NCBI RefSeq assembly: GCF_000003815.2
Contig: NC_049980.1
Coordinates: 5,708,461 to 5,772,460, forward strand
DNA length: 64,000 nt
Direction: 5' to 3'
DNA from: Branchiostoma floridae
Lineage: Eukaryota; Chordata; Leptocardii; Amphioxiformes; Branchiostomatidae
In this document: positions 1,906 to 34,744 of the stretch, piece after piece
Layout of the letters: the number at the start of each line of letters is the position of its first letter
Position numbering within the stretch: the stretch's first letter is position 1
The notes under the pieces: generated by a model
Told to the model about the DNA's origin: nothing
Seen by the model: the letters and a program-made list of their open reading frames with translations, nothing else
Databases searched by the model: none
Translations under genes and position numbers: made by a program

Positions 1906-3539
1906 TTGCAGCTAGTGCGTCATATGGGAAGTAGCAATCTTTCTTTCTATGACACATAATGTTTGTAAAGGATGTAATGTATCAATGCTATTGGAACATT
2001 CGTGAACAATGTGGCGAGTCATGATGCCACTTCGCTGGAAGACTAAGTGTGTGGCATCCATGCGGTGAAGAGGGCTATATGCTGTGATTCCGATGGCAAA
2101 AATTAGCATGAGGCACTAGGCACATTAGCGTGAGGCACAAGACTGGAATTCCATAGGATGGGGCTTGATAAAACAGACTAGGATATCACATTGGATAAAA
2201 TATGGTTGAATAACACGGAGCATAACAAGTTATAGCTCAACACATGATTTATGTTTGATGGAAGCAGGTTTATTGTAACTGCGCACATTGATGCAATGAG
2301 AAAATCGTTAGGCTCGACTGTTATGCAGCTGTGGAGTAGAATGGACTGGGGATGATCCTGGTTTTTGATGCAGAAAAACGTTAGGGGCTCAAGTCGCGCT
2401 TTTATGACACGTCACATCAATTATCTAAAACATAACTTTGTCTTTCCTTCACACAGTGACTCGCAAAAAAAACCCGTCAGATAACCGTAAGATAATCATA
2501 CTGACTTACTTGATACTTGATAAGGTCTCTTCATCGTTGTGTCAAGTGGTCTGCATCAAGGCGACGTCTCTTGTGGACCATCCTGCGCCATTCCATGCAA
2601 TTCTGGGCCGTCACTTCTACGTCTCTGGGATAATCATACGAACCCAGATTGTAATAGAATGTTACAACTTCCGCTGTCTATACGTGTTGCTCATCTTCTA
2701 AGGTTGTGCCCCTTTGTTAATAATGTCTATGGTTCTATTTTATTAATGAGGTTCAAACGTTGATTCAAAGAATAAAGCTTCTGCAACTGTTAACATATGG
2801 ATTGTAGTTTTACATGAATAGATTGATACTCTAAAGAGGGCGTATTTTCAACTAAAAATAAACTTGGATTATAGCAATTAGTAGGGATATCATCAAGTTA
2901 ATTTGACTCTTCAGACAATAACGATGTTACCTGATTTGGATACGCCTTCTCGTCATTGCAGAGTGGACCGTGAAGCAGCATCAAGATTGCTTCGCCACGG
3001 GAGTGCATCCTATGGCAAAGACAAGAAAAGCGCCGCCCTACGGTTAGAATTATCATTGCAGGAAAACCCGCATCCGTCATGGTCAAAACTAACTTGGATG
3101 GTATCACATCAAACAGGCCATACAAGATCGATGCACAAAGTCTGGAAGACTGGTATCATTCACCAACTTGACTACTACATGTACATCGAACTAGTTTCCC
3201 TTCTACAACTACGGTCATGGCTACATGTTTAAAATTAATGATGTCGTCATCCATGAAACTTACCTGCCGTGGACTTGCTGACATTTTATTTCCATGTCCC
3301 ATGAACAGCAGTACAGAAGAGGTTGGTGCTCATCATAAGCTGTGGTGTTAGAAACTACTGCACGAGTCTCCCAACAAGACGATGTGTCAGCTCTGGCCTG
3401 TGGGTCTACCTGGACAAGCTCAGCCAGTGGTGACCAGAACTGCATGCAAAGAGACAGAATAATCTTTGTGTACTATTCACAGCGTCACACCTGCCCCCGC
3501 ACGCCAGAGACAGGTGGTCAGTTAACTCAATTTTGGAGG

Positions 3540-3600
3540 GTAACCAATCAGAGGAGTTATGCAAACGTACACGTATGCTAATGAGTGCAGGGGTATAAAA
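3540..3600 (+). promoter_or_regulatory. CCAAT / octamer-like / TATA cluster
   Basis: ACCAATCAG at 3542, an octamer-like ATGCAAAC at 3559, TATGCTAATGA at 3574 and GGGGTATAAAAGG at 3590 sit within 60 bp in the order expected of a pol II core promoter. The LINE-like coding tail begins immediately downstream, so this may be promoter-like DNA inside a transposon. No transcript can be shown from sequence alone. Confidence 0.3.
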
Positions 3601-3960
3601 GGGAAAGATATTATCACAAAAAGGCGCACAGTTTGTCTTTAGCAAGACACCATAAAGTAGCCCTACCGGTCGAAACTCATCTAAAGCCTGTACCGCGCCA
3701 ATCGCGACACTCAAACCCAAATTCTTACAAGGCTCTACCTTTTCACAAAGACTGCTACAAACATTCCTTCTTCCCACAAACCGTGAGAGATTGGAACTCT
3801 CTACCGTACGAGGTCACGGAGATCACAGACGCTCCAAAGTTCAAGGAGGCAGTTCTCCGACGCCTCAGGGGACATTAAGGCGCAGCACTCCCCCTGGACG
3901 CTTTGCCCCAACTGAGGGGCGTTGTCCAGTACCCAATCAAGATCAAGATCAAGAAGACTT
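3585..3960 (+). mobile_element. LINE reverse-transcriptase C-terminal remnant
   Basis: The open frame 3585-3878 ends with the typical C-terminal tail of many APE-type LINE ORF2 proteins: a basic stretch, then SFFPQTVRDWNSLP, then a hydrophobic end (VLRRLRGH). After the stop, the tail carries a short tandem (GATCAA)n at about 3938-3957, as LINEs often do at the 3' end. Only about 90 residues are present, with no RT or endonuclease motifs, so this is a 5'-truncated dead copy. Confidence 0.8.
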
Positions 3961-5404
3961 TGGGGAGGAAATTAAAAAGGTGGTTGGCAGAAACAGGCGA
4001 AAATTAAAGTCGGGTCAATTAGGGACAGTAGGAAGGGTATGAGGGTGTTGAGATATAAAGAAGAAGGTATCTTTACCCTAAACACACAACCATCCTCTCT
4101 AATTTCTTATGGCTTGGGAAAAGTACTCGCCTCGCTCTCTGCTCAGGGATGGAGACTTTCCGCACTCCTTATCCCTCCATCACCTGTCTGGGGCGCGGGG
4201 TATGGGTGTGGTGGTATGAATCTTCCACTATATCAATCTAACCATGGCAGAATTATAGTTGACCAGCGTTTGATGTCCAATTAAACTTAAGGTTAGCAAG
4301 GAGGTTGAAAACCTTCTTGAGGTTAGTTATATACCCTGTTACAAAGAAAACCTTCCTGTGGATGCGGGTTTACCTGCAATGATGATTTCAGCCGTTTAAC
4401 GGCGCTTTTCTTCTTAAGATACACCAGCCTAAAGGATACACAAAACTTTCTTGTTCCTAGATCCTCATTCTTGCGACAAAAAGGCTTGTCCAAACAAGAA
4501 ATACATCTTTATGTACAAAATTCGTCTTTGAATACAAAAGAAAAGAAAGACATAGAAAAGAAATATTCTAATGAATAAAGACGCACTTACTCCCTGCAAA
4601 TCAGAGTTGCTTGGAGTGTATTGACTCAAGACAGATGCTAAAAATGCCCGCAAAGATCCGGCCAGCACAGTGTCACACTGTGTACGACTTGAAGGACATG
4701 TTGCAATACCAACCAGTGTAGATAGGTGGCGCTGTGAGACCTGTAAAGTCATGTCCAAACTTTGTAATGTTTACACATTTATTCCAGCCATGTAACTTTC
4801 CTCTTACGCTACTTGTTTGTTCTAATTGTGTTTCATCTACAAATGAAAAGAAGTTACGAATGTGTGCCTTGTATGTCAGGAAGGTGGAAATCGGGTTCTT
4901 GGTCCCTTAGCATAAAGGCCCCCTCTCACTTGACGTGCGGCACGCTTGCGGCATTGCTGCGTTCGTTCACTGAGGCACTGTTGTGTTAATTTCGCCGATT
5001 TTGTCTTGCACTCACACTGACGTGCGGCACTGTTGCGTTTCTAGACTAAATGAACAGCTGTGGAGTTCATCAATCCACGAAGCTTGGATATACCTCTGAC
5101 ATTTTGTGTATTTTTATGTCTTTTATATAATTCTTTTTGCTCCCGAAAGCTACCCGACCGGGTCACGGTTTGGAAATGTGACCTTAGCCATAGCGTTGGT
5201 AGAAACGTTACCAAAAAAACAACTGATTTTTGAGCACATGTAAAGTATTCTTAAAGCTTACGTAAAATCATACTTGCATAAAAAATGCGCCTTTACGCAT
5301 GCTTTTCGTGCAGTAAAATCTTGACTGTTGATCAGAAGTCTTATGTAGCAATCACCACCGTAACGGTAGTAACGACTGGTTCCCTCCTTTCTTCATCCTT
5401 TCAG

Positions 5405-7630
5405 GTGTCGGTGTGGACAACATGTTCATCCTGCTAGCGGCGTGGAGGAAGACCAACCCGTTGGACAGCGTGCAGGACCGGTCAGCCAACACCTACGCCG
5501 AGGCCGGAGTGTCCATCACCATCACGTCATTGACCAACGCCTTAGCTTTCGCCGTGGGCGCCATCACAAGCTTCCCGGGCGTCCGCGTGTTCTGTATGTA
5601 CAGCGGCATAGCTATCGTGTTTGCGTACTTGTTTCAGCTTAATTTCTTTGGGGCCTGCATGATATATGACGGTTACAGAGAAAAACAGAATCGACATTTC
5701 CTGACATGTATGAAGGTCCCAATAATTTCAAAAGATGACCAGACCAGTTGTTGTCAGCAATCTTGCTGTAGGGGCGACCCAAATAAGGCAGGGGTCGGAC
5801 AGGACGGCAAAGATCACAATGACCACCTCATTATGTTATTCTTTAAAAAGTACTACGGGCCTTTCTTGACAAATGTGTGGGTAAAAGTCGTAGTTATGAT
5901 TGTGTTTCTGGGGTACCTGGGCGTCGCGATTTGGGGGTGCGTCCAGCTGATGGAGGGTGTCCAGCTCAGTAAGCTTGCCGGCGACGCCTCGTACGTTGCC
6001 CGCTTCCTCGAGCAGGACGACCGCTATTTCAGCGAGTATGACGTCAGAGTCGCTGTGGTCGTAACAGAAAAATTAGACTACTGGGACCCTGACGTGCAGG
6101 ATCGAGTTGAGAACATGTTAGCGGAGTTTGAGGACACTGCGTTCACGTATGGAAAGAACGTGTCCGAGTCATGGCTACGCGATTACTTGGCATATATAGA
6201 CCGGATCTGCTCCAACCCCATGCTACCACCTTCGCAACAGTTGAACCTTACTGATAAAGATTCCTTCATAGAGTGCCTCAGAGACCGCTTTCTTAACGTG
6301 CAAGGGTTTACCAAATATGGTCATGACATATTGTTCAATGAAGACGGTACTGAAATCATAGCCAGTCGGTTCTTCGTACAGACAAAGGAAATTGACGGCA
6401 CTCTGAAGGAGAAAAACATGATGACAAAGATGAGAGAATTAGCCTCTGGGGCATCTGTAGAGGCGATTGTTTACCACCCAGCGTTCGTGTATTACGATCA
6501 GTACATCGCCATTCTACCCAACACCTTGCAAAACTTAGGTATCGCCACAGGAGCCATGTTGGTTGTTTCTCTCTTCCTCATGCCCCACGTAGTTAACGCC
6601 GTCTGGGTCACTCTCGCCATTGCGTCTATCTGCACGGGGGTGCTCGGGTTCATGACGCTCTGGTCCGTCAATCTAGACAGCGTTTCCATGATACATATCA
6701 TCATGTGCATCGGCTTTTCCGTCGACTTTTCGGCTCACATCGTATACTCCTTTGTCACGGCTAAGGAAAGTAATCGTGACGCCATAGTTGTGCATGCGCT
6801 GTACAGTCTGGGTGTGCCGATCCTTCAGGGGTCAATATCAACCATTCTGGGTGTAGCTGCGCTAAGCATGGCCCCCTCGTACGGTTTCCGGACCTTCTTC
6901 AAAACTGTGTTCTTAGTAGGGCTGGGTATCGGTACAGCGTACCGGTACAAAACCGGTTTTTCTTATTGGACCGGTCCAGAAAAACCGGACCTGAAAAAAT
7001 TAGGTGGACCGGATGTTGGACCTATTAGAAAATTAGCAGATTACTTGATCAGGTATTCACACGTTTTGGTGCTTGCAGGTGGAAGAAAATAACAAGAGTG
7101 AAGTAGAAAAGTTTTATAGTCATTTCTACCAAGTTTTACAGTCAATCGTACAGGCGCAGTTAGCGTTGTAGGATTTTAAGACGCCAGTGTAAGTCTAATA
7201 CTCCACCAAACAGATTTCTTTGTAGTGAAATGGACCATTAGAATGAGTCATACTGAATCAGGTACAGGTTCAGGTCCGGACCTGGACCTGATCCTCTGGA
7301 CCTGAACCGGACCTGGACCTGAATTTCTGTACCGGTACCCACCCCTAGTTCTTAGTCATCGTGTTCGGCCTGGTGCACGGTATTGTCTTCCTGCCTGTCA
7401 TGCTCTCCTGTTGGGGCCCGCAAGGGGGCGCGGTAAAGGTGAATGGAAACAGGCTGAGTGACGTGGCAAGAGCACAGAACAGAAACGAAAACCCGTTGAT
7501 GACCGTTAGTATGAAACTCTGGCTCGACCATTTAAAAGAAGACAATAGACAAAGAAACAAGGGGACAACTGAAAGTCAACAAAATCTGACTGCGAACCCG
7601 GAAATGGGTTTTTCATTGAAGCCGATCTAA
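5405..7630 (+). CDS. Patched-domain-containing protein (PTCHD3-like), C-terminal part, transposon-interrupted
   Basis: The exon opens after a TTTCAG acceptor at 5404, and the frame starts with GVGVDNMF, the TM4 GxxxD motif of the Patched/RND sterol-sensing region. TM segments follow, with a second GxxxD motif, GFSVDFSAHI, near 6708, then the C-terminal TMs. The frame runs cleanly to 6916, is broken by a 431-bp element (6917-7347), and resumes at 7356 through VFGLVHGIVFLPVMLS to a stop at 7628-7630. Without the element and one copy of its 8-bp duplication the two halves join in frame in a conserved helix. About 595 codons are visible; Patched-related proteins usually have 800 or more, so roughly 300 N-terminal residues lie upstream and were not found. 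Known Patched-domain proteins are multi-pass membrane proteins linked to sterol or hedgehog-type transport; the substrate here is unknown. As assembled the gene is broken unless the insert is spliced out. Confidence 0.88.
6917..7347 (+). mobile_element. hAT-type MITE inserted in the Patched-like exon
   Basis: The ends are inverted repeats: left TAGGGCTGGGTATCGGTACA, right (reverse complement) TAGGGGTGGGTACCGGTACA. The flanking 8 bp, GTTCTTAG, are identical at 6909-6916 and 7348-7355. An 8-bp target duplication with TAGGG-type ends is the hallmark of hAT transposons. The 431-bp interior carries repeated GGACCTGAACC-type words and no transposase frame, so it is non-autonomous. A diverged relative lies at about 34440-34734. 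Confidence 0.92.
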
Positions 7631-34439: not shown

Positions 34440-34734
34440 TCCAATCGACAGGAGAAACCAGAAAAAAAATAAGTAGGTATATTGCTGAAGCTGCGGAATG
34501 TTGGTATTTTTACCAGGTTTTTACAGTCAAACTTGGTCAAAAACAGAGGCAGTTAGTGTTGTTTGCACGAAGGTAGTTTTTAAAACGCTAATGGACGTCG
34601 GATGCTCCACTGAACAGAATTCTTTGTACTTGTATCGAATTGGACAATTGGGTTGAGTATGAGCATCACAGATAATTAGGGTCCGTGCCTGGACTGTACC
34701 TGTAGCTGAATTTTCTGTACCGGTATACCCACCC
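34440..34734 (+). mobile_element. Diverged relative of the hAT MITE in the Patched-like gene
   Basis: It aligns by eye with 7080-7347: GAAACCAGAAAAAAAATAAG, TTTTTACAGTCAAACTTGG, GCAGTTAGTGTTGT, CAGAATTCTTTGTA, and the right end TTTCTGTACCGGTATACCC then ACCCCTA. The left end is too decayed to place. Confidence 0.8.
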
Positions 34735-34744
34735 CTACTGTGCA

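What the first reader, a model, noticed from the sequence alone, without database searches (positions are those of the whole stretch)
6909..7355. Clean hAT-MITE insertion splits a Patched-domain gene inside a conserved membrane helix
The exact 8-bp duplication GTTCTTAG and the paired TAGGG ends show a transposon insertion. Removing the element plus one GTTCTTAG joins FFKTVFL to VIVFGLVHG in frame, the usual wording of the PTCHD family. The net gain is 439 bp (not a multiple of three), so the protein as assembled would end 59 codons into the insert. The reading frames on both sides are otherwise intact, so the event seems recent or under rescue.
Basis: partly seen in the sequence, partly recalled or inferred. 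Interest (0 to 1): 0.75.

Follow-up and report, generated by a model that had tools for sequence, protein, structure and literature searches.

The report
Recent jumping-gene insertion splits membrane-protein gene
A short, non-coding jumping gene of a common family has landed inside one member of a membrane-protein gene family in what is probably a lancelet genome; it most likely breaks this one copy, an ordinary kind of mutation unless the insert is spliced out as a new intron.

Summary
Bases 6917-7347 (431 bp) have 21-bp inverted ends (19 of 21 match) and lie between exact GTTCTTAG copies. Of 40 genome copies scored, 38 have an 8-bp target duplication with at most one mismatch (34 exact), of hAT pattern nTnnnnAn: a hAT-type MITE. 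The interrupted exon (5404-7630) codes for a Patched/NPC1-like protein; 15 of 15 paralogue loci examined run through the site without an insert. As assembled the frame stops at 7090-7092. The rest of the exon is open, with dN/dS 0.17-0.18 against its two nearest paralogues and no relaxation on its own branch; the element's terminal branch is about 1.2%. Best reading: a recent insertion, probably still polymorphic, that costs one redundant paralogue its last membrane helix. Another paralogue is split in the same exon by a LINE-like insert. Rival: splicing from GTAGGG (6916) to CCCCTAG (7348) would remove 433 bases and leave +6, in frame, like an introner; the donor is weak and no RNA was available: about 7%. 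No allele without the element was found in this assembly.

The parts
5404..6916 (+). Left part of a long coding exon of a Patched/NPC1-like (sterol-sensing) membrane protein; 3' splice-like TTCATCCTTTCAG just upstream
   Evidence: Open frame; Pfam Patched E 5.1e-29 and Sterol-sensing E 3.5e-27; 54 exon-wise family matches in the own genome, own locus and fragments included
6909..6916 (+). Left copy of the 8-bp target-site duplication GTTCTTAG
   Evidence: Exact match to 7348-7355
6917..7347 (+). Non-autonomous hAT-type element (MITE), 431 bp
   Evidence: Inverted ends, target duplication, many similar genome copies
6917..6937 (+). Left terminal inverted repeat TAGGGCTGGGTATCGGTACAG
   Evidence: 19 of 21 complementary to 7327-7347
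7327..7347 (-). Right terminal inverted repeat TAGGGGTGGGTACCGGTACAG
7090..7092 (+). First in-frame stop (TAA) met by the interrupted reading frame inside the element
6916..7348 (+). Hypothetical intron GTAGGG...CCCCTAG; removal would leave +6 bases, in frame (inferred, no RNA evidence)
   Evidence: Frame bookkeeping and splice-site scores
7189..7194 (+). Best-scoring donor-like site of 6851-7360 (agt|GTAAGT), inside the element; it lies downstream of the stop at 7090, so its use would not restore the frame
   Evidence: score from recalled human-like frequencies
7348..7355 (+). Right copy of the target-site duplication GTTCTTAG
7356..7630 (+). Right part of the exon: rest of the last membrane helix and the C-terminal tail, ending in TAA at 7628-7630
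   Evidence: paralogue alignment

Best explanation
A hAT transposase made elsewhere in the genome inserted a short non-autonomous element into the long coding exon of one Patched/NPC1-like paralogue, duplicating 8 bp. Shown: the element, its ends, its duplication, its family, the empty paralogous sites. Inferred: transcripts keep the element, translation stops after 58 further codons, and the protein loses its last transmembrane helix and tail and gains a short element-coded end; because the stop lies in what looks like the terminal exon, the transcript may escape nonsense-mediated decay. The gene was under purifying selection for most of its separate history, and the insertion allele is young and probably still segregating, tolerated because the family has other members.
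For: Exact 8-bp duplication and paired ends. The 40 copies scored, of 3,627 first-look candidates, are 94-100% identical; 38 of 40 have a duplication with at most 1 mismatch, 34 exact; T at position 2 and A at position 7 together in 27 of 38. 15 of 15 paralogue loci examined align through the site with no insert. The joined exon is open for 595 codons. dN/dS 0.171 (L042) and 0.182 (L049); own-branch changes left of the site 35 synonymous to 16 non-synonymous, against 43.5 to 26.5 (L042) and 28.5 to 16.5 (L049); right of it 10.3 to 8.7 against 8 to 8 and 4 to 5. Terminal branch 0.0118 in a tree of 39 of the 40 copies, L037 left out. The site aligns near residue 1230 of NPC1, at the start of its last membrane helix (alignment; helix limits recalled). 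Redundancy: 54 exon-wise matches at E <= 0.001 in the genome, own locus and fragments included, and another member is split by a LINE-like insert.
Against: No RNA, no second haplotype and no other individual or species were available, so neither polymorphism nor loss of function is shown. The 5' exons of this gene were not found in about 14.4 kb upstream, which holds a 559-base gap of N, so it is not shown that it is a complete, expressed gene. The 1.2% branch rests on about 5 substitutions. An intact frame with no relaxation is also what a rescued gene would show.
Confidence: 0.86

Rival explanations
1. New intron: the last G of the left duplication and the first bases of the element make a donor (GTAGGG), the end of the element and the first G of the right duplication make an acceptor (CCCCTAG). 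Splicing out 433 bases leaves six extra, adding Phe-Leu in the helix and keeping the frame, an introner-like birth of an intron.
For: The arithmetic works and is in frame; any copy whose duplication begins and ends with G on the coding strand would do the same: 4 of 38 copies on the element's + strand, this one included, and 2 of 38 on its other strand. Intron-making transposons whose splice sites lie in or next to the duplication, some adding codons, are described in PMC9860276 (abstract and section 7 read). Both sides of the exon are intact and no relaxation is seen.
Against: The donor is weak: 24% of the 4,201 + strand GTs of the window score as well or better with a recalled human-like matrix, and the element carries a better-scoring donor at 7189. 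The AG at 7354-7355 competes, has the richer pyrimidine tract (0.80 against 0.67) and would give -1. Of 38 copies with duplications, this one alone lies in a clear coding frame (590 codons within the stretch used); the next longest joined frames are 171 (L025), 126 (L027), 117, 117 and 103 codons and were not searched for families. Intact flanks are equally expected from a young insertion.
Confidence: 0.07
2. The gene was already dispensable or a pseudogene copy (for example lacking 5' exons) before the element landed.
For: Upstream exons were not recognised in about 14.4 kb.
Against: No other stop or frameshift in 595 codons, dN/dS 0.17-0.18 and an own-branch ratio no higher than that of the two uninterrupted paralogues. 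The start of the exon and about 40 bases before it are shared with both paralogues.
Confidence: 0.06
3. Assembly error that placed the element here.
For: The published B. floridae assembly merged two divergent haplotypes (PMC7269912, passages seen); that this window is from it is not established.
Against: A mis-join would not be expected to make an exact 8-bp duplication around exact element ends; the copy has its own sequence, at best 98.1% identical to another scored copy.
Confidence: 0.01

Closest known systems
hAT superfamily non-autonomous elements (MITEs)
   Same: 8-bp duplication nTnnnnAn, short inverted ends beginning TAGGG, under 500 bp, many similar copies; the family traits themselves are recalled
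   Different: Nothing found; the Repbase name was not looked up and a transposase source with matching ends was not identified
Introners (intron-making DNA transposons; PMC9860276)
   Same: Sits in a coding exon; splice signals could be taken from the junction of duplication and ends; duplication of 8 bp
   Different: No RNA evidence; among the 38 copies checked this one alone is in a clear coding frame; weak donor
PRHOXNB intron gain with the MITE LanceletTn-2 in amphioxus (one sentence in PMC5802833, passages seen; the work it cites was not read)
   Same: MITE in a lancelet gene associated with a change of gene structure
   Different: That element was found in a reported new intron; here splicing is unproven; the sequence relation of the two elements was not tested
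Patched / NPC1 membrane proteins
   Same: Sterol-sensing and Patched domains; paralogue L042 aligns to NPC1 through the last membrane helix
   Different: One of a set of many paralogues in this genome; subfamily not assigned

Membership tests
hAT-type MITE | 8-bp target-site duplication, preferably nTnnnnAn | tested here: met
   GTTCTTAG exact; 38 of 40 copies with at most 1 mismatch, 27 of these 38 with T2 and A7; the consensus itself is recalled
hAT-type MITE | Short terminal inverted repeats | tested here: met
   19 of 21; 17 to 20 of 21 in 39 of 40 copies, 10 of 21 in the remaining one; L037 has a diverged 3' end
hAT-type MITE | Short, many similar copies, no transposase gene | tested here: met
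   431 bp, too short for a transposase; 40 of 40 scored copies 94-100% identical, 3,627 first-look candidates
hAT-type MITE | An autonomous element with the same ends supplies the transposase | tested here: inconclusive
Introner | Element is removed by splicing | not testable with these tools
   No RNA data; only site scores
Introner | Copies of the family form introns in many genes | tested here: inconclusive
   1 of 38 copies, this one, lies in a clear coding frame, which speaks against it; but the sample is the copies nearest to this one, a small part of 3,627 candidates, and no annotation or RNA was used
Patched/sterol-sensing protein | Patched or sterol-sensing domain over the curated cut-off | tested here: met
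   101.5 bits against 23; 95.6 against 22.3
PTCHD subfamily | Nearest to PTCHD proteins in a tree | not tested
   No PTCHD reference was used

The most novel reading that the evidence does not exclude
The element is a newborn intron: a hAT MITE whose ends, combined with a G-N6-G duplication, form GT...AG and are spliced out, leaving two extra codons in a membrane helix. A lancelet MITE family would then make in-frame introns whenever its 8-bp duplication starts and ends with G on the coding strand, an introner caught at its first step in a chordate.
Probability: 0.07. Interest if true: 0.65.

Novelty: new member of a known kind. Interest (0 to 1): 0.27.

Why it matters
As it stands it is a clean, datable example of a MITE breaking a member of a redundant gene family, useful as a polymorphism marker. 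It also gives a simple, testable rule: with a TAGGG...CCCTA element and an 8-bp duplication, a G at both ends of the duplication makes GT-AG borders whose removal always adds six bases, in frame. That could be tested genome-wide with RNA reads to see whether hAT elements seed introns in this lineage.

Tried and rejected
Empty allele in the same assembly: the protein search gives this locus at 100%; the next full-length match is 89% (L042), and a partial 95% match over residues 1-168 belongs to the paralogue on C13 (L049/L052), 88% over residues 207-504. So no second haplotype was found. Ancestral intron at the site: rejected, 15 of 15 paralogue loci examined run through. Of the 20 loci L041-L060 I left out L041 (the window locus itself), L052 and L058 (the same loci as L049 and L053) and L051 and L057 (the C16 member split elsewhere; its right piece also aligns through the site); the matches below L060 were not examined for this. 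Upstream exons: comparison with 9-10 kb upstream of two close paralogues, and tblastn with the first 500 residues of two long-frame relatives, found nothing upstream of 5404; inconclusive. Other exonic copies: joined flanks of 38 of 40 copies searched for long frames; this one has 590 codons, the next 171, 126, 117, 117 and 103, without family searches; L027 borders a lectin-like frame (recognised from memory) that begins at its insertion point. Genome-wide pattern search for copies with G before the left end: not completed. Patched-family search of the genome (PF02460): not completed. Matching hAT transposase: 33 domain matches, ends not obtained. Literature listings: 'introner' with 'amphioxus' gave 1 paper, on gammarids; amphioxus with MITE and hAT 5 papers, none on this element by title and abstract start; 'LanceleTn' with amphioxus 0; 'amphioxus' with 'patched domain-containing' 1 paper, a sea anemone genome.

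Full report
What is there. The window lies in a 513,431,437-base genome of 431 contigs, contig C2. From size and gene content I take it for a lancelet, probably Branchiostoma floridae; this is inference from memory, no call names the organism. Bases 6917-7347 are 431 bp with inverted ends (19 of 21 matching) between exact copies of GTTCTTAG. The exon 5404-7630 codes for a Patched/sterol-sensing protein (Pfam Patched 5.1e-29, Sterol-sensing 3.5e-27), nearest among solved chains to PTCH1 and NPC1. With one GTTCTTAG and no element the frame runs through FFKTVFLVIVFGLVHG to the TAA at 7628-7630, 595 codons in all. As assembled it stops at 7090-7092.

The element family. The DNA search scored 40 of 3,627 first-look candidates, 94-100% identical; 38 match over 1-431, one over 1-430 and one over 1-420. 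I read all 40 with flanks: 38 have an 8-bp duplication with at most one mismatch, 34 exact; of the other two, L017 shows its repeat out of register and L037 has a diverged 3' end. The duplications have T at position 2 in 32 of 38 and A at position 7 in 31 of 38, both in 27 of 38, the nTnnnnAn of hAT elements (consensus recalled). At 431 bp it cannot code for a transposase and is therefore non-autonomous. The genome has 33 hAT dimerisation-domain matches that could include the driver; I could not fetch their ends.

Age. In a tree of 39 copies (L037 left out) the terminal branch of the window copy is 0.0118 and its nearest relative is L002 at 98.1%. That is below the 3.2-4.2% heterozygosity stated for sequenced amphioxus species (start of abstract seen in listings, PMC12500494), so a segregating insertion is expected if the host is a lancelet. 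The published B. floridae assembly merged the two haplotypes of one animal (PMC7269912, passages), which would fit with no second allele in the genome search.

The host gene. The protein search gives 54 exon-wise matches, own locus and short fragments included. I took 15 loci with alignments over the site: 15 of 15 have no insert, so the site was continuous coding before. The closest, L042 and L049, are 85-93% identical in DNA by piece. dN/dS to them is 0.171 and 0.182, and changes on the branch of the interrupted gene are no richer in replacements than on theirs, left or right of the insertion. So the gene was kept by selection for most of its separate history; this cannot tell a recently lost gene from a rescued one. 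No upstream exon was found in about 14.4 kb.

Consequence. The site aligns near residue 1230 of NPC1, at the start of its last membrane helix (alignment; helix position recalled). If the transcript keeps the element, the product loses that helix and the tail. Since the stop lies in what appears to be the last exon, decay of the transcript is not assured (inference).

The new-intron reading. The last G of the left duplication plus the TAGGG end reads GTAGGG, and the CCCCTA end plus the first G of the right duplication reads CCCCTAG. Removal of 6916-7348 (433 bases) leaves six extra bases in frame. Intron-making transposons with splice sites at such borders, including some that add codons, are known (PMC9860276, abstract and section 7 read; the words Branchiostoma, lancelet and hAT do not occur in its main text). 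The discussion of PMC5802833 mentions a MITE in a gained intron of an amphioxus gene (passages; the cited work was not read). Against it: 24% of the window's 4,201 + strand GTs score as well as the donor or better, a better-scoring donor lies inside the element, and a second AG seven bases on, with the richer pyrimidine tract, would break the frame; and of 38 copies this one alone is in a clear coding frame, the next longest joined frame being 171 codons. I keep it at about 7%.

A second case. The paralogue at C16 is split in the same exon by an insert of about 3.7 kb with a 7-bp repeat (AGATAGC) and a 1,009-residue frame that looks like a LINE endonuclease and reverse transcriptase (recognised from memory, not searched). 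Two members of one family hit by unrelated elements fits redundancy and element load, not a special property of this site.

Verdict. The event is most likely an ordinary, young hAT MITE insertion in a redundant gene.

Noticed in passing
L072 (G000:C16:7349000-7356500), about 2038-5759 of its reverse complement: A Patched-like paralogue is split in the same long exon by an insert of about 3.7 kb that looks like a LINE, with a 7-bp repeat AGATAGC, an AAATA-type tail and an uninterrupted 1,009-residue frame; the right piece of the gene also holds a TAG.
   Followed up: partly
window 34578-34737: Two pieces, 78% and 84% identical to parts of the MITE, ending in GTACCGGTATACCCACCCCTA: apparently an older, 5'-truncated relative.
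   Followed up: no
G000:C234, C384 and C6 (26.17-26.45 Mb): Short fragments of this Patched-like exon (query residues about 191-258, 67-81% identical) occur at several places, as if a piece of the gene had been captured by a repeat.
   Followed up: no
G000:C6, 19.8-27.3 Mb: 11 of the 33 hAT dimerisation-domain matches of the genome lie on this one stretch of C6, which also holds Patched-exon fragments.
   Followed up: no
window 3585-3878: Frame resembling the C-terminal end of a LINE reverse transcriptase (FFPQTVRDWNSLPYEV...), upstream of the exon; recognised from memory only.
   Followed up: no
L027: A copy of the MITE lies right beside a C-type-lectin-like frame (GGYIRLGRHCVRLVPIPKSFDDAQQACKADGATLA), perhaps just in the intron; recognised from memory only.
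   Followed up: no
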